From Candidatus Macondimonas diazotrophica (GTDB lineage Bacteria; Pseudomonadota; Gammaproteobacteria; UBA5335): 64,000 nt of DNA. How positions within the stretch are numbered: the first letter of the stretch is position 1; the number at the start of each line of letters is the position of its first letter. Both the position numbers and the translations under genes were made by a program. Below are positions 8,937 through 48,407 of this stretch, piece by piece. The notes beneath the pieces are model-generated. The model had not been told where the DNA came from and ran no database searches. It saw nothing but the letters and a program-made list of their open reading frames with translations. The stretch covers positions 124,001-188,000 of the forward strand of contig NZ_SRIO01000002.1 in assembly GCF_004684205.1 (NCBI RefSeq), given 5' to 3'.

Positions 8937-10346
8937 GTGCGGGCATCAATACGGCGGATATTGCTCCTCGGCTTGCTGGTTCTGTTGGCGACAACGGGCT
9001 GGGCGGCCGAGCAACCATCCCTGTCCGGTCGGGTAGTCGAGCTGGCCCTGACCGGTCCGGTCGGACCCGCGAGCAGCGATTACCTTCTGCGGGCGCTGGA
9101 GCAGGCCGACCACGGCGATGCGGCGCTGGTGGTGCTTCGCATCGATACGCCCGGCGGGCTCGACAGTTCGATGCGCGACATCGTCCAGGCGATCCTGGCC
9201 TCGCGCGTTCCCGTGGTCGGTTTCGTGTCCCCATCGGGCGCCCGTGCCGCCAGCGCCGGAACCTATATTCTCTATGCCTGTCATCTGGCTGCCATGGCGC
9301 CGGGGACGAATCTCGGCGCGGCGACGCCAGTCGCGATCGGGCCGGGCGGCACGCCACCTGGGGAACCGGCGAAGCCCGAGCCGTCCGACGGCGCGACGGC
9401 GGATGGCTCGCGGCCGCCGGCGCCGGCCGATACCCTGGCGCGCAAGTCGCAGAATGACGCCGTGGCCTACCTGCGCGCCTTGGCCGAACTGCGGGGGCGC
9501 AACGCCGACTGGGCAGAGCGGGCGGTGCGCGAAGCCGCCAGTCTGTCCGCCCAGGCGGCCATGACGGCCGGGGTCATCGAGGTGGTGGCTTCCGATCTGC
9601 CGGATCTATTGCGACAGATCGACGGACGGCGCGTGGCAGTGGGCGGTGGTCTCGCGACGGTGGACGTTCAGGGTCGCGAGGTGGTGCCGCTGCTGCCGGA
9701 TTGGCGGACCCGTCTGCTGGCGGTGATCACCAATCCCAACGTGGCCTATCTGCTGATGCTCGTGGGCGTTTACGGTCTGATCCTGGAGTTCTACAACCCG
9801 GGCATCGGCGTGGCGGGTGTGGCCGGTGGCATTTGTCTGTTGCTGGCCTTGTTCGCGTTTCAGGCGCTGCCGGTGAACTACGCCGGCATGGCTTTGCTGG
9901 TGCTCGGCGTGGTGCTGCTGGTTGGCGAAGCGGTCATGCCCAGCTTCGGCGCGCTCGGCATCGGCGGGGTGATTGCCTTTGTGTTGGGTTCCATTTTGCT
10001 GCTCGATCGCGACATCCCGGAATTCCGGATTGCCTGGGGGTTGATCCTTGGGGTCGGGCTGGGCTCGGCCGTTGGCGTTGCGCTGTTGGCCGCGTTTGCC
10101 GTGCGCGCGACGCACCGTGCGGTGACGACGGGTGCCGAAGCGATTCTGACGGATTGCGGCGAGGCGATCGCGGATTTCGTCAACGGCCGAGGGCCGATCC
10201 GGCTGCAGGGCGAAATCTGGCAAGCGCAGTGCGACCGCCCGGTGAGTGCCGGGGATGCGGTGCGTGTAGTGGAGCGCCGGGGTTTGATCGTGAAGGTCGA
10301 GCCCATGGCAAAGGATCTTGGATGGAACCAGGGAGTAAAACCATGA
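8937..10346 (+). CDS. NfeD-family membrane-bound ClpP-class serine protease
   Basis: Long-form NfeD (1b type) protein of 469 aa: a signal peptide, a periplasmic ClpP-like protease domain (about 25-225), four to five membrane helices (about 255-375) and a C-terminal OB-fold NfeD domain. The Ser/Lys dyad is visible in the [14 protein letters not shown] segment and in the [20 protein letters not shown] segment. Between them lies an extra Pro/Gly-rich insert (about 140-165). The start is GTG at 8937 behind GGGAGGAC. The stop overlaps the next gene's ATG (ATGA), giving the classic nfeD-slipin pair. In the related archaeal system the protease cleaves the C-terminus of its stomatin partner, so a membrane quality-control role is inferred. 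Confidence 0.9.
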
Positions 10347-20674: not shown

Positions 20675-20702
20675 AAAAAAGCCCCGGGGGTTGCCCGGGG
20701 CT
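20675..20702 (-). terminator. Rho-independent terminator of the ETF-QO gene
   Basis: A 9-bp GC-rich stem (AGCCCCGGG/CCCGGGGCT) with a 5-nt loop is followed on the minus strand by six T residues. It lies 31 bp beyond the ETF-QO stop, between two convergent genes. There is no T-run on the plus-strand side, so it acts mainly for the minus strand. Confidence 0.85.
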
Positions 20703-26337: not shown

Positions 26338-26345
26338 CGATCAGC

Positions 26346-26376
26346 CGTGCCGGGGTGTCTCGATAGCCCCGGCACG
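26346..26376 (+). promoter_or_regulatory. Strong intercistronic hairpin between gap and pgk
   Basis: A perfect 10-bp GC-rich stem (CGTGCCGGGG/CCCCGGCACG) with an 11-nt loop starts 9 nt after the gap stop. It is followed by GGTGTTCTTT rather than a tight U-run. It may be a partial terminator or a 3' stabiliser of the upstream tkt-gap mRNA, giving more gap than pgk. Confidence 0.6.
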
Positions 26377-26411
26377 GGTGTTCTTTCCGAACTCGCACTG
26401 CGGAGGCTGTG

Positions 26412-38295: not shown

Positions 38296-41070
38296 TCATC
38301 GGGGTGTGTTCGGGGCTCCGCCAGCGGTTTCCAGTAGCAAGTGTCCCAGTGCCTGCTCGGAGAGCGGACGGCTCAGCCAGAATCCCTGCAACTCCTGGCA
38401 ACCTCGTTCGGTGAGGAAGGCCCATTGTGCCTCGGTTTCCACGCCCTCGGCGATGACATCAAGCTGCAGGCGTCGGCTCATGCTCAGCATGGCTTCGACA
38501 ATGGCCGCATCCTGCTCCGAGCCGGGGAGTGCGGAAACAAAAGAACGGTCGATCTTGAGGGCGTCGAACGGATATTGCTTGAGGTAACTGAATGACGAAT
38601 AGCCCATCCCGAAATCGTCTATTGCAATCTGAACGCCGATTTCGCGCAGGGCGCGCAGGCTTTCCAATGCTCTGTCCGGATGTGCGATGAGTGCATTCTC
38701 AGTGATTTCCAGCATCAGGGCATCCGGTGTCAGGCGGTTGCGCTGCAGGGCTTCGGCGATCTGACCGGGGAGTTGGGGATTGGCAAACTGGGCTGGCGCC
38801 ACGTTCACCGCCATGCGGAGATTGGGGGAACCGAAACGCTGCCATAAAGCGAGCTGACGCAGTGCCATATCCAGCACTTGCTGACCCAGAACGGGAAGCA
38901 GACCAATGCGTTCGGCCAAGGGAAGAAAGCTATTCGGGCTGAGTATCCCGCGTGTGGGATGTGCCCAGCGAACCAGTGCCTCCACGCTGGAAACTTGACC
39001 GGGCACTTTTCCGAAGATGGGTTGATAGACCAAGAACAGTTCATTCTGGCGCAGAGCTTGTCGCAGCTCATGCGCACCCATGGGTGAGGCATCAATCGGT
39101 TTGCGCGCCCGGCTTGCCAGCCGGTAGCAGTGCCGATGGCGTTTGGCCTGGTACATGGCCGTTTCAGCCTGGCGGATCAGATCGGCGGTATCGTCTTCCT
39201 CATCGCTGGCACCCAATACTGCAATTCCGATGCTGGCCGAAAGACCCAGCATCGTCCCGGCAACCAGTAGTGGACGGTTGAGGGCTTCGAGCAGGGATTG
39301 AGCGAGCGAGGTGGCCAGGGAGGTTGCCGAGGCGCCTTGGACGACAACGGCAAAGGCATCACCACCGACGTGAAAGACTTTCGATCTGGGCTGGTCTTCC
39401 AAGTCTCTAAAACGTTGCGCGACATCTCTCAGGATCTCGTCACCGACGGCCGGATCCAATGATTCATTGATGGATCGGAAATGGTCCAGATCGATCCAGA
39501 GCAACGCCAGCTGGTCAGTTTGACGCGTGGTTACAGTGGCATGATGCACGAGCTCATGCATCAGCGCCTGACGATTGGGCAGCGCGGTTACGGCGTCGAT
39601 GTGAAGAGTTCGTGGGTGTTCCAACTGGAACTGCTCGGCGCTGTTCGAGGTATCGCGGCACACACCCACATAATGGGTGATGCGTCCAATCGAGCCGCGT
39701 ACTGCGCTCAGGCTCAGATGAAACGCCAGAGGAGTCCCATCCAGGCGGCGGCCCTGTACGGGGCCTTGCCAAGTGCCGACCGTTTTCAGGTGCTGCCAGA
39801 GACTGTCGAGTTCCGTCATGGGCTGGCCAATCGCAAGGAGAAACTCGGGCGCGAGATCCTGGATGGCGCTACGCGAGCAGCGCATCAAATGGCAGAATGC
39901 ACCATTCGCCGACAAGACGCGGTGCTTGTCGTCGAGAATGAAGAGGGATTCGCCGATCTGTGACATTGCGTCGCGCATCATATTGAGCTCCTGCTCGACC
40001 TTCCGGTATTTCGACAGGTTTTGCAGCGTGCCTTCGATGCGCAGGGGGCGGCCACTCGAATCCCGGATGACTTCGCCCCGCTCCCGCACCCAATGCACTT
40101 TTCCTTCGGGGGTCACGATTCTAAATTCAACATCAAAAGGGCAAGCGCTTCGCAGCGCATCCCGGTGGTGACAGGTGACTCGCTGCAGATCATCGGAGTG
40201 GATCAGTTTCCGGAAACCAATGTAGTCGTTGGAAAAATCCTTCGGATTGATGCCCAGAAGGGTGAACAGCTCACGTGACCAGTGGGATTTGCGAGTTTTG
40301 AAGTCATAGCGCCAACAGCCCAACTCGGCAATATGACGGGTCTCTTCGAGGCGCGCCTGAGAATCCGCCAATGCCTTCGACCAGGTCCGCTCCGCCGTCA
40401 CATCGCTGGCAACGCCAACGACTCCGATGATCTGATCTTTGGACCATAGGGGGCCGTTGGTAATGGTCAGGTGGTGTTGGTGGCCATTTTTGGTGAAGAC
40501 TCGGATTTCCCCCCGCTGACCGGTGCCGCCCAAGGCCATGAGAAACATTGAGCGTGCGAACAGCCGATCTTCGGGATGGACCAATTGATTGAAGTCACGC
40601 GTTTCCAGTTCCCGACGGGTATATCCAGTAATGTGTGAGAGCGAGGAATTGAGATTGATGAAATGGCCGAGTGGATCGCACATGAACACCACGTGGTTGG
40701 CGCGATCCAGGACATCGGCTAAGGCCATCGGGAGATCATGGGGCGCATGCTTCGGCAGCGCTGTACTGATAACGCACCAGGTTTGATTATTGCCTGCAGG
40801 CGTCAAGACCCATTGTGTGCTGCACGGATCGCCGCTTGCCCGCGTCAGTCGGAACTGGTTCACCCGCGGTCGATCGGATGTGGTGTTCAACAGGCAGCGC
40901 AATGCGGACTGACTGCCGGGCGTGACCAGCTTCAGACATTCGGTCTGCAGTAAATCCTGTGGCGTCCTGCCAAGCAGTGCTTGGGTGTCGCCGCACGCGG
41001 CCTGAATCACGCCATCGGCGCTGAGCCGTAATTGGACAGATTCTCCCCGTGGCGTCAGCTCGCTACTCAT
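38296..41070 (-). CDS. Multi-PAS, degenerate GGDEF and EAL signalling protein
   Basis: A 924-aa cytoplasmic protein with about four PAS-type modules (about 10-500; for example [21 protein letters not shown] and [13 protein letters not shown] followed by PAC-like HWVRERGEV). A GGDEF domain follows (about 505-660), then an EAL phosphodiesterase domain (about 675-915). The GGDEF signature is altered to GGDAF (residues 569-573), replacing the catalytic Glu. The EAL domain looks intact: EAL at 697-699, [34 protein letters not shown] and AEGVET. It is therefore predicted to degrade c-di-GMP rather than make it. No membrane helix was seen. It is transcribed toward msrPQ with a 52-bp gap, and its upstream gap faces the efflux operon. 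Confidence 0.92.
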
Positions 41071-41161
41071 GATATTTGCTTCCCCTTGTGCTGATGCTGG
41101 TTATTATCGTCATGAAAGTGACAGCTATAGGCTCAAATGACGTAAATCGGAGGACGCCCTC

Positions 41162-41272
41162 ATGGGTATTCTTATCAACAAGATGGCGGCATCAATTCAA
41201 GAATCTTTAGAGCTAGAACCGCCTTGTGTCAAGGAAAGCTATCATTTCGGTGTTTCGGATCCGGCTGAATGA
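41162..41272 (+). CDS. Candidate small protein of 36 aa, unrecognised
   Basis: An open frame with ATG at 41162 lies 8 nt after a strong GGAGG Shine-Dalgarno sequence and encodes 36 residues beginning MGILINKMAASIQESLELEP. It is acidic in the middle, has one Cys and no membrane helix. It lies in the 516-bp gap between the divergent PAS-GGDEF-EAL gene and the efflux operon. I do not recognise it. The ribosome site and position are its main support. It could also be a fragment of an older gene, because the DNA that follows up to 41483 contains no convincing coding region. Confidence 0.45.
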   Translation: MGILINKMAASIQESLELEPPCVKESYHFGVSDPAE

Positions 41273-41483
41273 CCGGCCGTATGCAAGATGACGATTCAGC
41301 GGGGGATGGGAGCTGCAGTCTGGCTATATGCCCTTGGCAGTGCAGCGAGAAGACCATCCGCCGGGGCTGGGCCATGGGGCGACGCCGATAACCTGATCTT
41401 TACCGGTGTCGGAGTCCACGGACCGTTGATTTTCATCGGCAGGTTGATACGCAGAACTGTCGGGAAGTGGCCGTCAGAGCGCC
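41273..41483. other. Non-coding stretch, nothing recognised
   Basis: The interval between the 36-aa frame and the efflux-operon control region contains a weak 88-codon frame (41288-41554) that runs through the promoter and the dyad. It has no ribosome site and no recognisable motif, and is treated as chance. Confidence 0.4.
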
Positions 41484-41511
41484 CGCAAGTCGAGCGGATC
41501 ACCGACTTGCG
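41484..41511. promoter_or_regulatory. Candidate operator: 9-bp inverted repeat overlapping the -35 box
   Basis: CGCAAGTCG (41484-41492) and CGACTTGCG (41503-41511) are perfect inverted copies separated by 10 nt, giving a centre-to-centre distance of 19 bp, about two helical turns. The right arm covers most of the -35 hexamer of the promoter below. This is the arrangement of a dimeric repressor site such as a TetR-type regulator. No regulator gene is adjacent. Confidence 0.6.
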
Positions 41512-41535
41512 ACCGTTTGAGGGGGAGCGTATAAC
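41507..41535 (+). promoter_or_regulatory. Sigma70 promoter of the efflux operon
   Basis: TTGCGA (41507-41512), 17 nt and TATAAC (41530-41535): 4 of 6 and 5 of 6 matches to consensus at ideal spacing. Transcription would begin near 41542, leaving a leader of about 45 nt before the TolC-like gene. Confidence 0.65.
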
Positions 41536-41586
41536 GCTAGCTTTTGAGTTCTAATTCAGGCTTTGAGCTGAACAGGGATTGTGTAT

Positions 41587-42948
41587 ATGCGACGCCCCCA
41601 CAGGAAGATGGCCGCGCTGCTCTGCGCGACTGTCTTCACGCCTATCACCGTAGGTGCAGAGACACTCGATCAAGCATGGGAAACGGCACGGGCCAACGAT
41701 TTCGGCCTGAGAGCGGCCCAATTTGAGGTTCAGGCAGCCGAGGCCGGCCGCAGCGCGGCTTCGCGCCAACGCTTCCCTTCGGTATCCGCCAGCGGTTTCA
41801 CTTTGAAGCTGGATGAAGCGCCGACGGTCCAGTCGCCAATCGACGATACGCTGACGATTCCATCTCCCATTCGGTTCCCGTTGGTTCCGTCGAGCTTTTC
41901 CTTCCCTGTGCCGCCCGATCTCCAGCGACTTGAACTCGGTGAAGATCAGTTCACTCAGGTCGCATTGCAAGCAACGCTACCCTTGTATACGGGGGGTCGG
42001 CTGACGAATCTGACGAAGGCGGCTGAGTCTCAGGTCGGGGCGTCGAACTGGCATCTGCGGCGCACTGAGGATGAGCTGAAGATCAATGTGGCCGAAGCTT
42101 ATGTGAACGTCCTGCGCGCTCAGGGCGGGGCGAAGATTTCGGACCGTGAAGTCGAGGCGGTTTCCGGATACGTTCGCGATGTTCAGAACCTGTATGACCA
42201 ACAGATGGTTGCCAAGAGCGATCTGTTATCTGTTCAGGTGTATCTGGCCGATTCGAAACAACGCAACCTGCAGATCAAGAATGCCGTCGAGCTCGCTCAA
42301 TCGTTCTATAACCGCATGCTGGGGCGACCGCTTGATGCGCCGGTGGACTTGGAGGCGCTTGAACCAACGTCCACCGTCGAGCCAGGGTCGTTGGGCGAGC
42401 TGACCAAGCAAGCACTCGAAAATCGCCCGGAACTCAATAACCTGGCCGAGCAGGCTGAAAGCCTGCGCTATGCCGCGAAAGCCATCAAGGGTGGGCTGTT
42501 GCCTCAGGTTGCCTTACTGGGGGGCTTGGTCTATCTGGACCTCGATGCCCTAGAAGACAATACGATCGGATATGCGGGTGTGGGCGCTTCCTGGACCCTA
42601 TTCGATGCGGGGGTGACCCGCAAGCAGGCAGAGGCCTTGTCCAAGCGGCGCATTTCCAGTGAGGAATTGCTTGCCCAGGCGCGCGACTTCATTGCCCTGC
42701 AGGTGCGGCAAACCTGGCTTGCCCGCGAAGAGGCACGGAATCGTCTCGAAGTCGCCAAGACCGCGTTGGAAAGCGCTGAAGAGAATCAACGTGTGACTCG
42801 TGACCGCTATCGGGAAGGCATGGGCACGAATACGGAGGTCCTTGAAGCCGAGACTCGCCGGACTGCTGCCTTTACGAGCTACAACAATGCCAAGTACGAT
42901 GCGGTTTACGCCGATCTGCGGCTCAAATATGTGGTGGGCGGAATCTAA
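41587..42948 (+). CDS. TolC-family outer-membrane efflux protein
   Basis: A 453-aa outer-membrane channel protein. The signal peptide includes KMAALLCATVFTPITVGA. Two related OEP repeats follow, each with long coiled helices; examples are TLDQAWETARANDFGLRAAQ and LGELTKQALENRPELNNLAE for the repeat starts. LPLYTGGRLTNLTKAAE precedes the first hairpin and WTLFDAGVTRKQAEALSKRR the second. The ATG at 41587 lies 9 nt after AGGG; a GTG at 41581 would be too close to it. It is the first gene of an operon with an HlyD adaptor, a fused ABC ATPase and two permeases. Confidence 0.92.
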   Translation: MRRPHRKMAALLCATVFTPITVGAETLDQAWETARANDFGLRAAQFEVQAAEAGRSAASRQRFPSVSASGFTLKLDEAPTVQSPIDDTLTIPSPIRFPLVPSSFSFPVPPDLQRLELGEDQFTQVALQATLPLYTGGRLTNLTKAAESQVGASNWHLRRTEDELKINVAEAYVNVLRAQGGAKISDREVEAVSGYVRDVQNLYDQQMVAKSDLLSVQVYLADSKQRNLQIKNAVELAQSFYNRMLGRPLDAPVDLEALEPTSTVEPGSLGELTKQALENRPELNNLAEQAESLRYAAKAIKGGLLPQVALLGGLVYLDLDALEDNTIGYAGVGASWTLFDAGVTRKQAEALSKRRISSEELLAQARDFIALQVRQTWLAREEARNRLEVAKTALESAEENQRVTRDRYREGMGTNTEVLEAETRRTAAFTSYNNAKYDAVYADLRLKYVVGGI

Positions 42949-42996: not shown

Positions 42997-44112
42997 ATGG
43001 CTGCGGAGAAAACGCGTCGACCGTTTGCATGGTTGCTTATGGGATTGGGGGCCGCCGCGCTGATTGCGTTAGTCGTCGTTTATCGATTGATGAGTGCGCC
43101 CTTGCCCGAGGGGCTGCTCCAGGTAAACGGGCGTATTGAAGGCGACACGACAACGGTTGCAGCCAAGTATCCGGGCAAGGTCCGCGAAATTCTGGCCAAG
43201 GAAGGTGATCTGGTGGAGCAGGGGCAAGTGCTCAGCCAGCTGGAGGATGAGGAACTTCAGGCTCGCATTCGACAGGCGGATGCAGGCATCACCAGCTTGG
43301 AGGCGCGCCGCAACGCAGCCAACGAAAGCCTCGCTGTGGCCAAGAAAGAATTGCCCTTGGGGATTGCGGCGGCAAAGTCTCAAGTGACCTATATGCGGGC
43401 GACCCTGGACAAGGCCAGAGCTGCCGAGGCGCAGCTTGCTCGAGACCTGCAACGCATCGAATCGTTGGCAGAAGCGGGCACGGTCAACAAGCAACGTCTG
43501 GAGCAAGCACAGCTCCAGTACACCGCGATCCGTAGCGATGTGCGCTCGGCCGAAGCGGGCGTGATCAGCGCGGAGAAGCAGCTGGAGCGAGCCTATCTCG
43601 GCAAGGATCAGATCAGTGCCAAGGAGACGGAACTCGGCGCTCTCGATGCGGAGCTGGAGCGGGTTCGAGCCATGCGCCAGGAAGCGATGATTGCCCTCGA
43701 CAACATGACCGTTCGGGCACCGAGCAAGGGTATCGTGACCGCGCGGCTCGTGGAAGCGGGCGAGGTCGGGGCGGCAGGTCGTCCCATGTATGAGCTCGTC
43801 GATCCGGAGCGGCTTTATCTCAAGGTTTATGTACCGGGTGATGAAATCGGCAAGGTTCGTCGGGGGCTCGAAGCGCAGGTCTACGTGGATGCCTATCCCG
43901 ACCGACCCTTCTCCGCAACGGTAGACTACATTGCTTCGCGCGCCGAATTCACGCCGAAGGAAGTCCAGACGCCTGACGAGCGCGTGAAGCAAGTTTATGC
44001 GGTCAAGCTTTATTTCAAGGAAAATCCCGATTATCTGTTGACCCCTGGCATGCCAGCCGACGCGGTGATCCGCTGGGATGAGAGCGTCGCATGGGAAAAA
44101 CCCAGATGGTAA
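42997..44112 (+). CDS. HlyD/YbhG-type periplasmic adaptor (membrane fusion protein)
   Basis: A 371-aa adaptor with one N-terminal membrane helix (about 12-30, WLLMGLGAAALIALVVVYRL). It has a biotinyl-lipoyl half-motif (TTVAAKYPGKVREILAKEGD and later VRAPSKGIVTARLVEAGEV), a long alpha-hairpin (about 85-225) and a beta-barrel domain (ERLYLKVYVPGDEIGKV). The hairpin carries several heptad-like segments rich in Ala/Glu/Gln. It links the inner-membrane ABC transporter to the TolC-like channel. Its gene lies 48 bp after the channel gene. Confidence 0.92.
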   Translation: MAAEKTRRPFAWLLMGLGAAALIALVVVYRLMSAPLPEGLLQVNGRIEGDTTTVAAKYPGKVREILAKEGDLVEQGQVLSQLEDEELQARIRQADAGITSLEARRNAANESLAVAKKELPLGIAAAKSQVTYMRATLDKARAAEAQLARDLQRIESLAEAGTVNKQRLEQAQLQYTAIRSDVRSAEAGVISAEKQLERAYLGKDQISAKETELGALDAELERVRAMRQEAMIALDNMTVRAPSKGIVTARLVEAGEVGAAGRPMYELVDPERLYLKVYVPGDEIGKVRRGLEAQVYVDAYPDRPFSATVDYIASRAEFTPKEVQTPDERVKQVYAVKLYFKENPDYLLTPGMPADAVIRWDESVAWEKPRW

Positions 44113-44148
44113 TGTGCTGAAAGCCAAGGGGTTGGCGGGAGTATGGAC

Positions 44149-46098
44149 ATGGATGAAGCGCCAGTCGTCCGCATACGCGGGCTGGTAAAGAATTATAAGG
44201 AAGTCCATGCGGTACGGGGTATCGATCTTGATGTTCCCAGAGGCAGCCTGTTTGGGTTGATCGGTTCGGATGGTGCGGGCAAAAGCAGTACCATGAAAAC
44301 CGTCGCGGGCGTGATGAGTTATGAAGCTGGCGCGGTTGAGGTGTTCGGCGAGCACCTTGATTCTGAGGCGGCTGCCGAACGCATCAAGCTTCGGTTGGGC
44401 TTCATGCCCCAAGGGTTGGGGCAAAATCTCTATCCTGATCTGTCGATCGAAGAAAACATCGATTTTTTCGCCCGGTTGCGGTTGGTGAAGCCGGGCGATC
44501 TGGCGGAGCGTAAGGAAAAGCTGCTCCGCATGACGCGACTGGACAAGTTCCGTGACCGTGCCATGAAGAATCTTTCCGGCGGCATGAAGCAAAAACTCGG
44601 TCTGGTCTGCACGCTGATTCACGAACCCGAGCTCATCATTCTCGATGAGCCGACGACCGGGGTCGATCCGGTCTCTCGCCGGGACTTTTGGGCGATTCTG
44701 GCTGAACTGCTGGCGGAGAAGGGGATCTCCGCATTGGTCTCAACGGCCTACATGGACGAAGCCTCTCGTTTTCATCACGCGGCGCTCATGCATCATGGGC
44801 GAATCCTGGCTCATGGGGAAATCGAAGAACTGATCCACTTGCGGCCGGGAGCCGTTGTTTCCGTGGCCGTGCAACCGCAATTGGAAGCCCTGAACCGACT
44901 GCGCACGCAGTTCGACCAGGTGATGGCGCTGGGCAGCTTTCTGCGGATATTCGTACCAAAGGATGCCGGCGATGGTCAGCAAGTCGTTGAGAATGTGCTG
45001 TCCGGGCTGGATGTCGGGGAGATTCAGACCGATACCCCGGAGCTCGAAGATATTTACGTGAGTCTCCTTGAGCTCAACGGCGAAGGACAGGCTGTCCGGG
45101 AACTGCCCGCACCTCCGGAAGGGACTGTCATTCATCTCGATCCGGACAAGCCGGTCATCGAAGCCACGAATCTGGTTCGAGATTTCGGCGCTTTTCGGGC
45201 GGTCGACCATGTCAGCTTTGACGTGCGTCCGGGTGAGATATTCGGTCTGTTGGGTGCCAACGGCGCCGGAAAGACCACGGTGATCAAGATGCTGACCGGG
45301 ATCTTGAGGCCGTCGGAGGGCGCAGGCTCCGTGGCCGGTGCCGACATGCGCCACTCCGGCGCGGTGATCAAGAAACGCATCGGTTACATGTCCCAGGCAT
45401 TCTCCCTCTATCAGGATCTGACGGTCGTCGAAAACATCCGGCTTTATGCCGGTATCTATGCCGTGCCGCCACGCGAGATCGAACCGCGTTTGCGTTGGAT
45501 CGTCGATTTGGCTGGCCTTGAGGGAATGGAAGATGTACTGACCGGATCGCTTCCGATGGGGTTGCGACAGCGTTTGGCGCTGGGTTGCGCCTTGGTGCAT
45601 CGTCCGCCGATTCTGTTTCTGGACGAGCCGACCTCAGGCGTCGATCCCATGGGGCGCCGAGAATTCTGGGACGTGCTGTTCCGGCTCTCGCGGCAGGAGG
45701 AGGTTGGGCTTCTCGTGACCACCCATTACATGGTCGAGGCCGAGTATTGCGATCGGATCGCACTCATGCACGCCGGCAAGGTGGTGGCCTATGATTCGCC
45801 GGCCGGCTTGAAAACGGACGTGGAACGTCGATTCGGGCAATTGCTCGAGATTCGATGCGAACGACCCTATCACGCACAGAATGTGCTGCGCGAAGGCGGG
45901 TTCGAGGACGCAACGTTGCACGGACGCCGGCTTCAGGTGCTCGCAACGGATCCGGATGCCGTCAAGCGTCAGGTCCGGACTCTGCTCGAAGAGGCGGGGA
46001 TTGCGGTGCAGGATACTCGCCGATTGCCGCTCACCATGGAAAATGTGTTCGTGCAGAACGTGCTGGATCTTGAGCACAAGGCAGGAAAAGCAGCATGA
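44149..46098 (+). CDS. Two-domain ABC ATPase (YbhF-like)
   Basis: A 649-aa protein with two fused nucleotide-binding domains. NBD1 has Walker A GSDGAGKSS, signature LSGGMKQK, Walker B LIILDEPTTGVD, and VSTAYMDEA where the switch His should be. NBD2 has Walker A GANGAGKTT, a degenerate signature LPMGLRQR, Walker B ILFLDEPTSGVD and a proper switch His in VTTHYMVEA. If the two pair head to tail, one composite site is consensus and the other degenerate. The ATG at 44149 lies 7 nt after GGGAG; the ATG at 44143 is an alternative. The stop overlaps the first permease gene. The closest known arrangement is E. coli ybhGFSR. Confidence 0.94.
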   Translation: MDEAPVVRIRGLVKNYKEVHAVRGIDLDVPRGSLFGLIGSDGAGKSSTMKTVAGVMSYEAGAVEVFGEHLDSEAAAERIKLRLGFMPQGLGQNLYPDLSIEENIDFFARLRLVKPGDLAERKEKLLRMTRLDKFRDRAMKNLSGGMKQKLGLVCTLIHEPELIILDEPTTGVDPVSRRDFWAILAELLAEKGISALVSTAYMDEASRFHHAALMHHGRILAHGEIEELIHLRPGAVVSVAVQPQLEALNRLRTQFDQVMALGSFLRIFVPKDAGDGQQVVENVLSGLDVGEIQTDTPELEDIYVSLLELNGEGQAVRELPAPPEGTVIHLDPDKPVIEATNLVRDFGAFRAVDHVSFDVRPGEIFGLLGANGAGKTTVIKMLTGILRPSEGAGSVAGADMRHSGAVIKKRIGYMSQAFSLYQDLTVVENIRLYAGIYAVPPREIEPRLRWIVDLAGLEGMEDVLTGSLPMGLRQRLALGCALVHRPPILFLDEPTSGVDPMGRREFWDVLFRLSRQEEVGLLVTTHYMVEAEYCDRIALMHAGKVVAYDSPAGLKTDVERRFGQLLEIRCERPYHAQNVLREGGFEDATLHGRRLQVLATDPDAVKRQVRTLLEEAGIAVQDTRRLPLTMENVFVQNVLDLEHKAGKAA

Positions 46099-47249
46099 AC
46101 TGGGCGCGGCTTGCGGCAGTGATCGCCAAGGAATGGGCCGAAATTACCCGTGACCGCCTGTTTCTCGCATTGGCATTCATCGTGCCACCGATATTGATGG
46201 TGGTATTCGGTCTCGGGATGAATCTCGATGTGGAGAATATCCCGCTGGCCATCATCGACTACGACCATAGCCACCAGAGTCGAGACTATGCCTACCGGAT
46301 GATCGATTCACGGTATTTTGACTTCAAGGGCTATCTGAGCGATGAGAAGGATGTTGCGAAACTGATTGCGCGGGGCGATGTGCGCGCCGTCGTCGTGATC
46401 CCGCCGAAATTCGGTGAGGAATTGCTGGCTGGGCGCGCCGTGGCCGTTCAAACGTTGCTCGATGGCCAGTTTCCGCTGCGGGCCAATATTGCACGCGGCT
46501 ATATCGGTGCAATCAATGCCAACTATTCGCAGGAACTGATTGCAGATTTTCTCAGCCAGGCTGTGGGCCTGACACCCGATCAGGCGCGCCAACAGATGGG
46601 CAATCTGCGTTTGGAAATGCGCATGCTGTACAACCAGAGCGGGAAAAGTATCTGGTCGATGGCGCCCAAGCTCATCATGATGGTTCTGATGATGACACCG
46701 CCCTTGCTAACCGCCGTCAGTGTCGTACGCGAGAAGGAAAGAGGCTCCATTCTGAACATTTACGCCTCGACGGTGAGTCGCGGTGAGTTTCTCCTGGGCA
46801 AGCTGATGCCCTATGCCGGTATCTCGATGGTCAATGGCATCTTTCTGTGGGCCTTGGCGGTTTTCTATTTCCAGGCGCCGTTCAAGGGATCGTTCGGTTT
46901 CTATTTGCTGGCCACGGCGATCTACTCCTTTACGACGACGGGAATCGGCCTGTTGGTGTCCAGCTTCGTGAAGACCCAGATAGCGGCCGTGGTGATCACT
47001 ATGGTCGTGACATTGGTTCCAGCCATCCTGTTTTCTGGCATGCTCTTCCCTTTGAGTTCCATGGGCCCCGAAGCGCAGGCCATTGCCCATCTTGCTCCGG
47101 CGATGCACTACGGCATGATCATTGACGGGACCTTCATGAAGGGCATTGGTCTCGACAAGCTGTGGTCGTCGGTGGTGTCGCTTGTGGTCTATGCCTTGGT
47201 GCTGTTCGTTTTGGCCTATCGCTTTTTCACAAAGCGTCCGCAGGAGTAA
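46095..47249 (+). CDS. ABC-2 type permease (YbhS-like)
   Basis: A 384-aa permease with one N-terminal helix (about 22-42, LFLALAFIVPPILMVVFGLG), a large periplasmic domain (about 45-185) and five C-terminal helices. EKERGSILNIYASTVSRGEFLLGKLMPY is the hallmark coupling segment, and HLAPAMHYGMIIDGTFMKG lies near the end. It overlaps the ATPase stop (ATGA). It pairs with the following permease as a heterodimer that transports drug-like or lipid-like substrates; the substrate is not evident. Confidence 0.92.
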   Translation: MNWARLAAVIAKEWAEITRDRLFLALAFIVPPILMVVFGLGMNLDVENIPLAIIDYDHSHQSRDYAYRMIDSRYFDFKGYLSDEKDVAKLIARGDVRAVVVIPPKFGEELLAGRAVAVQTLLDGQFPLRANIARGYIGAINANYSQELIADFLSQAVGLTPDQARQQMGNLRLEMRMLYNQSGKSIWSMAPKLIMMVLMMTPPLLTAVSVVREKERGSILNIYASTVSRGEFLLGKLMPYAGISMVNGIFLWALAVFYFQAPFKGSFGFYLLATAIYSFTTTGIGLLVSSFVKTQIAAVVITMVVTLVPAILFSGMLFPLSSMGPEAQAIAHLAPAMHYGMIIDGTFMKGIGLDKLWSSVVSLVVYALVLFVLAYRFFTKRPQE

Positions 47250-47255
47250 ATCTCC

Positions 47256-48407
47256 ATGTTTGGCAACTTTGGAGAAGTCCTGCAGCACATGCGGGTCATG
47301 ACCTGGAAAGAGCTACTGCAGTTTCGGCGGGATGTCTTTCTGCTCATCATCGTGGTTTATGCGTTTTCGGCGGATATCTATATCGCGGGCTCGGGAATCG
47401 AGATGGAACTCAAGCGTGCAGCCTTGACCGTGGCCGACTACGACCAGTCTCCGGCATCGCGTGAGCTGATCTACAGTTTTCGCGAGCCTCAGTTCAAATA
47501 TCAGGGCATGGAAATGAGCGGCGATCGCGCCATGGATCTCCTTGATGCCGGCGAGACCATGCTCTATCTCGAAATTCCTGCGGATTTCAATGAGTCATTG
47601 CTGACTGGTCGACCGACTCAGGTGCAATTGTTCGTCGATACCAGCAACTCGGTCCTGGGGTCGCTGGCCACCAGCTATGCCGCACAGATCGTGGCCGGAT
47701 TCGGCATTGAAAAGGCACGCGAGCGCCTGTCCGTGGCGGGAGCCATGGGCGGATCCATGCCGGTAGTGAACAGTGCGCATCGCGTCTGGTTCAACCCCAA
47801 TGGCAAGGACAGCTGGTTTGTCCCGATCAACGAGATGCTCACCATGATCACCATGCTGTCGATCATGCTTCCGGCTGCCGCCATGGTCCGGGAGAAAGAG
47901 CGGGGAACCGTTGAGCAGCTTCTGGTTTCTCCGTTGACGCCGCTCGAGATCATGTTGCCCAAGGTATTGGCGATGACGATGGTCATCCTGGTCGGCGTTA
48001 CGCTCGCGGTTTTCGGTGTGCTCGGTCCTGTGTTCAATATTCCCTTCCGGGGCAGCATGACGCTCTTTTACGTGCTGACGGCGATTTACGTGTTCAGTAC
48101 GGCCGGCTTTGGGCTGGCGATTTCCACCGTGGTCAACAATCTCGCCCAAGTTGGGCTGATGGTGATCATGCTGCTGTCCCCAATGCTGTTGCTGTCCGGC
48201 GCCTTCGTCCCGCCAGAGGCGATGCCAACCGCTTTGAGTTATCTAATTCTGCTCTCTCCGATGCATCACTACATCGAAATCGTCATGGGCATTTTTCTCA
48301 AGGGTGTCGGCCTCGATGTACTGTGGCCTTCGGTTGCCGGTTTGGTGATCGTGGGAACGGCCGTCTTCGCATTCGGAACGTGGCGATTCCGCCGGCAGTT
48401 CGGATGA
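47256..48407 (+). CDS. ABC-2 type permease (YbhR-like)
   Basis: A 383-aa partner of the preceding permease, with the same plan. It has an N-terminal helix (about 20-42), a periplasmic domain with ADYDQSPASRELIYSFREPQ, five C-terminal helices with REKERGTVEQLLVSPLTPLEIMLPKVLAM, and the end segment LILLSPMHHYIEIVMGIFLKG. It lies 6 bp after the first permease. It is the last clear transporter gene; the rhomboid gene follows after 92 bp. Confidence 0.92.
   Translation: MFGNFGEVLQHMRVMTWKELLQFRRDVFLLIIVVYAFSADIYIAGSGIEMELKRAALTVADYDQSPASRELIYSFREPQFKYQGMEMSGDRAMDLLDAGETMLYLEIPADFNESLLTGRPTQVQLFVDTSNSVLGSLATSYAAQIVAGFGIEKARERLSVAGAMGGSMPVVNSAHRVWFNPNGKDSWFVPINEMLTMITMLSIMLPAAAMVREKERGTVEQLLVSPLTPLEIMLPKVLAMTMVILVGVTLAVFGVLGPVFNIPFRGSMTLFYVLTAIYVFSTAGFGLAISTVVNNLAQVGLMVIMLLSPMLLLSGAFVPPEAMPTALSYLILLSPMHHYIEIVMGIFLKGVGLDVLWPSVAGLVIVGTAVFAFGTWRFRRQFG

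What the first reader, a model, noticed from the sequence alone, without database searches (positions are those of the whole stretch)
41484..41535. Perfect 9-bp dyad overlapping the -35 box of the efflux operon
Two 9-bp inverted repeats 10 nt apart cover most of the -35 hexamer of a good sigma70 promoter (TTGCGA-N17-TATAAC). The geometry fits a dimeric repressor acting on two helical turns. Related ybhGFSR transporters are controlled by a TetR-type regulator (CecR), but none is encoded here, so the regulator would be elsewhere.
Basis: partly seen in the sequence, partly recalled or inferred. Interest (0 to 1): 0.5.

Follow-up and report, generated by a model that had tools for sequence, protein, structure and literature searches.

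The report
Conserved efflux-operon promoter, chance-like dyad
The mirror-image DNA sequence is really there in front of an export-pump operon, but related bacteria keep the promoter and its flank rather than the symmetry, so it is a fairly ordinary promoter and not a proven repressor site.

Summary
The dyad CGCAAGTCG-N10-CGACTTGCG is at 41484-41511 as described, overlapping TTGCGA-N17-TATAAC upstream of an OEP-MFP-ABC exporter operon. Such dyads are not rare: 11 in the window against 10.3 +/- 2.8 in shuffles; 4% of shuffles of this intergenic stretch hold one.

Three of three congeners searched carry the operon's first three genes and the promoter, GACTTGC-N16-GCGTATAA. The 19 bp upstream of the right arm are more alike than background columns (0.60 v 0.345, p about 0.001). 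Symmetry is not kept: arms pair at 9, 5, 5 and 3 of 9 positions, with no compensatory change, and the left arm is no more conserved than the loop. The genome has no second copy at up to 2 mismatches, and none lies near its five TetR genes.

So the promoter and a conserved element abutting its -35 box are real; the perfect dyad is seen in this genome only and is probably accidental. A regulator may bind the element; sequence cannot say whether it would repress or activate.

The parts
41484..41492 (+). left arm of the dyad, CGCAAGTCG
   Evidence: the congeners have CGCGCGTCG, CGGAAGTAG and CCGGAGACG here
41493..41502 (+). 10-nt loop between the arms, about as conserved as the left arm
   Evidence: 0.567 v 0.63 mean column identity, p 0.36
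41503..41511 (+). right arm CGACTTGCG; its core GACTTGC is invariant in four species and holds most of the -35 box
41507..41512 (+). -35 hexamer TTGCGA (TTGCAC or TTGCAG in congeners)
41530..41535 (+). -10 hexamer TATAAC, with the invariant GCGTATAA at 41527-41534 and CTAGC conserved one or two bases further on
41581..42948 (+). outer-membrane efflux protein (OEP), first gene; the ATG at 41587 in a conserved CAGGGATTGTG..TATGCGA context may be the true start (inferred)
42997..44112 (+). HlyD-type membrane-fusion protein
44143..46098 (+). ABC ATPase with two nucleotide-binding domains in one chain
46095..47249 (+). ABC-2 permease
47256..48407 (+). ABC-2 permease

Best explanation
This is the sigma70-type promoter of an OEP-MFP-ABC exporter operon. 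The part under selection is the promoter itself (GACTTGC-N16-GCGTATAA, then CTAGC after 1-2 bases) plus about 19 bp directly upstream that are probably contacted by a protein (RNA polymerase's alpha C-terminal domains or one transcription factor; inferred). The right arm of the dyad is simply the conserved -35 segment. The left arm is part of the conserved upstream block but is not kept as its mirror image, so the perfect 9-bp symmetry in this genome is most likely accidental and not the functional unit. Shown: promoter conservation, block conservation, loss of symmetry in three relatives, no other near-copy in the genome. Inferred: selection, protein contact, direction of any regulation.
For: Four orthologous promoters with identical spacing. 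Left arm plus loop 0.596 mean column identity against 0.345 for 58 background columns, permutation p 0.00075. Arms pair 9, 5, 5 and 3 of 9; 0 pairs with changes on both sides. All 8 left-arm differences between the congeners and this genome fall at pairs whose right side never changes, while the two pairs whose right side changed (positions 41503 and 41511) show no answering left-arm change (read). Dyad count in the window equals shuffles. The only own-genome match at up to 2 mismatches is the site itself; counts to 3 mismatches equal the reversed-pattern control, 3 and 3 with the site itself included; with 8-bp arms 52 and 50.
Against: The register of the dyad gives the most pairs of 20 slid registers in this genome and in G001, ties with one other in G002 and with many in G003; with G-T allowed, 75% of cells pair against 25-42% when slid by 1-3, though the structure was taken from one of the four rows and the shuffle control there is uninformative. 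So a degenerate dyad in the ancestor cannot be excluded. In this genome the two right-arm bases that differ from the three congeners both add a pair. Against the spacer alone the block's conservation is only marginal (0.393, p 0.04). Only four species and no binding data.
Confidence: 0.6

Rival explanations
1. The dyad is the operator of a dimeric repressor (TetR or MarR type) encoded elsewhere, which blocks sigma binding to the -35 box.
For: Perfect arms with starts 19 bp apart over the -35 box; the block is conserved; best or joint-best register in slides; five TetR genes in the genome, one with a weak CecR_C match, 28.3 bits against a cut-off of 24, found in 1 of 4 genomes of the genus, this one; E. 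coli ybhGFSR is listed under the TetR-family regulator YbiH/CecR (PMC6790063, passages seen).
Against: Symmetry reduced to 5, 5 and 3 of 9 in 3 of 3 congeners without compensatory change; no second copy at up to 2 mismatches, and no dyad beyond shuffle level within about 1.5 kb of the five TetR genes; the CecR_C gene has what read as flavin-monooxygenase and acyl-CoA-dehydrogenase genes on one side and no pump recognised within about 5 kb (by eye). That three congeners lack it may reflect incomplete genomes (82, 86 and 95%).
Confidence: 0.2
2. The conserved block is an activator site in the class II position: its centre lies about 42 bp upstream of the inferred start, beside a weak -35 (3-4 of 6).
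For: Centre 41497.5 and an assumed start near 41540 give about -42; the -35 boxes of the congeners match consensus at 3 of 6 (read); block conserved.
Against: The transcription start is assumed, not mapped; no known activator motif was tested; the class II geometry is recalled, not from a call (the paper search for it failed).
Confidence: 0.13
3. The inverted repeat works as a hairpin in RNA read through from upstream, or as a terminator.
For: RNA of this stretch folds into the 9-bp stem (z -2.0, 6 of 200 shuffles as good).
Against: No terminator found in 41050-41620; it lies upstream of its own promoter; the minimum-energy folds of G001 and G002, the two congeners folded, do not form this stem.
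Confidence: 0.04

Closest known systems
E. coli CecR (YbiH)-ybhGFSR, TetR-controlled ABC exporter operon
   Same: A membrane-fusion protein and an ABC exporter in one operon (PMC7190983, passages; that YbhS and YbhR are permeases is recalled)
   Different: In E. coli the regulator gene is part of the operon; none was recognised beside this one, which carries an OEP gene as its first gene.
TetR-family operators overlapping promoters (general; PMC6790063 passage)
   Same: A palindrome over a promoter element
   Different: Palindrome not kept among orthologues; no copy found near the five TetR genes
Class II activator sites (CRP, LuxR type; recalled)
   Same: Element centred near an inferred -42, overlapping a weak -35 box
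   Different: Activator and transcription start unknown

Membership tests
Operator of a dimeric TetR-type repressor | Inverted repeat over promoter elements | tested here: met
Operator of a dimeric TetR-type repressor | Two-fold symmetry kept in orthologous promoters | tested here: not met
   5, 5 and 3 of 9 pairs in 3 congeners, no compensatory change
Operator of a dimeric TetR-type repressor | Regulator gene adjacent, or bearing the same site in its own promoter | tested here: not met
   none of 5 TetR loci (about 1.5 kb each side, both strands) holds the dyad beyond shuffle level: best 5-7 mismatches of 18, shuffles about 6; MarR and other families not searched
Operator of a dimeric TetR-type repressor | Specific binding by the regulator | not testable with these tools
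   needs gel shift or footprint
CecR regulon | CecR orthologue in the genome | tested here: inconclusive
   one TetR with a CecR_C match just above cut-off, 1 of 4 genomes; orthology not tested
sigma70 promoter | -35 and -10 hexamers 16-18 nt apart, conserved | tested here: met
   N17 in 4 of 4 orthologues; the strict consensus scan is negative because the -10 ends in C
Class II activator site | Centre near -41.5 from a mapped start | not testable with these tools
   start only assumed

The most novel reading that the evidence does not exclude
A single-target regulator, not encoded beside the operon, binds a conserved 28-bp element abutting the -35 box in this genus, and in this species two right-arm differences make the site perfectly symmetric, perhaps together with the CecR_C-domain TetR that was found in this genome and not in the three congeners.
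Probability: 0.1. Interest if true: 0.3.

Novelty: new member of a known kind. Interest (0 to 1): 0.15.

Why it matters
It gives a conserved promoter for a tripartite ABC exporter in a gammaproteobacterial genus whose three matched public records are metagenome-assembled genomes, and it shows how a perfect palindrome at one promoter loses its standing once orthologues and shuffles are consulted. If a regulator does bind, it would be an unlinked one for an exporter whose E. coli counterpart has a linked TetR.

Tried and rejected
Regulon search: the dyad at up to 3 mismatches in the own genome (3 forward matches, the site itself included, v 3 for the reversed pattern) and an 8-bp-arm version at up to 3 mismatches in four genomes (52 v 50, 23 v 21, 36 v 37 and 9 v 20) gave no excess. 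I fetched the regions of the three 2-mismatch hits in this genome (on C3, C13 and C21) and the 3-mismatch hit on C6. Those on C3, C6 and C13 lie inside long open frames. The one on C21 lies just past the 3' end of a 418-aa reverse frame and inside a 173-aa forward frame that overlaps it (the latter's reality not tested). The other hits, about 48 more in this genome and those of the congeners, were not examined one by one.

A consensus of the four sites found only the four orthologous sites at up to 3 mismatches; it was made from these sites, so only the absence of others is informative. The bare promoter pattern found only the orthologous promoters at zero mismatches; its 2-mismatch hits are about as many as in the reversed control.

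The 88-aa frame 41288-41554 across the dyad was considered as a gene: no Pfam family at E 0.001 and no match in the other 228 of 229 genomes of the class, so rejected.

A sigma54 or ECF promoter reading was considered by eye and dropped. The upstream regions of G004 (same family) and G021 (class) show no recognisable counterpart of the promoter by eye, so they were left out of all counts. Among the best 80 hits kept by the scan of genome contigs, only the three congeners already held are above 51% identity. Papers: passages on CecR/YbiH only (PMC7190983 and PMC6790063) and search listings; the primary CecR paper was not read. A search for BtrH or DUF4872 counted 46 papers; the 6 listed look unrelated.

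Full report
Observation. The dyad CGCAAGTCG-N10-CGACTTGCG is at 41484-41511, with TTGCGA at 41507-41512, a 17-nt spacer and TATAAC at 41530-41535. The operon behind it encodes an outer-membrane efflux protein, a HlyD-type fusion protein, an ATPase with two ABC domains and two ABC-2 permeases. The divergent neighbour is a PAS-GGDEF-EAL protein.

Chance. The window holds 11 perfect dyads with arms of at least 9 and gaps of 3-30; 60 dinucleotide shuffles give 10.3 +/- 2.8, at most 16. Of 4000 shuffles of the 510-bp intergenic stretch, 4.0% hold one. Finding one is unremarkable; its overlap with the -35 box is what makes it mildly notable.

Relatives. The ATPase search over 56 genomes finds close orthologues in G001, G002 and G003 (same genus, 87-89% identity), G004 (same family, 75%) and G021 (class, 57%); the other listed matches are at most 51% identical. 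OEP, MFP and ATPase genes are together in all five; the permeases were not checked there. The three congeners have the same promoter in front of the OEP gene: GACTTGC, 16 nt, GCGTATAA, then CTAGC after one or two bases. G004 and G021 show no counterpart by eye and were left out of the counts.

Symmetry. At the same register the arms pair at 9, 5, 5 and 3 of 9 positions. No pair has a change on both sides. All three congeners have T and A where this genome has C and G at the ends of the right arm, but the facing left-arm bases are the same in all four; each of the 8 left-arm differences faces an unchanged right-arm base. This is the opposite of compensatory change. On the other side, the register is the best of 20 slides in this genome and G001, tied with one other in G002 and with many in G003, and with G-T allowed 75% of cells pair against 25-42% in slid versions. 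That last comparison is biased, since the structure comes from one of the rows, and the shuffle control cannot discriminate here (observed and shuffled values are identical). A weak ancestral dyad is not excluded.

Block conservation. The left arm plus loop (19 columns) has a mean pairwise identity of 0.596, against 0.345 for 44 upstream plus 14 spacer columns (column permutation p 0.00075) and 0.393 for the spacer alone (p 0.04). The left arm (0.63) does not differ from the loop (0.567, p 0.36). These tests treat columns as exchangeable and use an ungapped anchor on four related sequences, so the p-values are rough. A conserved element abutting the -35 box is supported; a dyad within it is not.

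Regulon and regulator. The own genome has no other copy at up to 2 mismatches, and counts to 3 mismatches equal the reversed control; the looser pattern in four genomes shows no excess. The genome has five TetR matches over the cut-off; none has the dyad beyond shuffle level within about 1.5 kb. One carries a CecR_C domain just over its cut-off, seen in this genome and not in three incomplete congeners; the genes on one side of it read as oxidoreductases (by eye, no family search). MarR, LysR and other regulator families were not searched.

Mechanism. Best reading: a vegetative promoter with a conserved upstream-abutting element, in which the perfect symmetry is accidental (0.6). A dimeric repressor (0.2) or an activator in the class II position (0.13; start assumed) remain possible. 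RNA hairpin or terminator readings are weak.

Novelty. An ordinary promoter of a known kind of operon.

Noticed in passing
L034:2898-3866, L035:3245-4204, L037 about 9101-10057 (minus); absent at window 41071-41580: A gene with BtrH_N and DUF4872 domains (family search on the G001 copy) stands between the EAL-type gene and the efflux operon in G001, G002 and G004, but at E 0.001 no match is found in this genome or G003, so the intergenic stretch here may be the scar of a lost gene.
   Followed up: partly
41204-41232 (minus strand): A likely divergent promoter of the PAS-GGDEF-EAL gene, TTGACA-N17-TAAAGA, is present with the same spacing in G001 and G002; G003 keeps TTGACA but has TAGACC at the -10 place.
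   Followed up: partly
L161 (G000:C14 near 41041): A TetR gene with a weak CecR_C match, found in 1 of 4 genomes of the genus, beside what read as a flavin-monooxygenase and an acyl-CoA-dehydrogenase gene (by eye).
   Followed up: partly
26345-26377 and 20680-20702: Other GC-rich inverted repeats in the window (11-bp arms with 11-nt loop; 9-bp arms with 5-nt loop).
   Followed up: no
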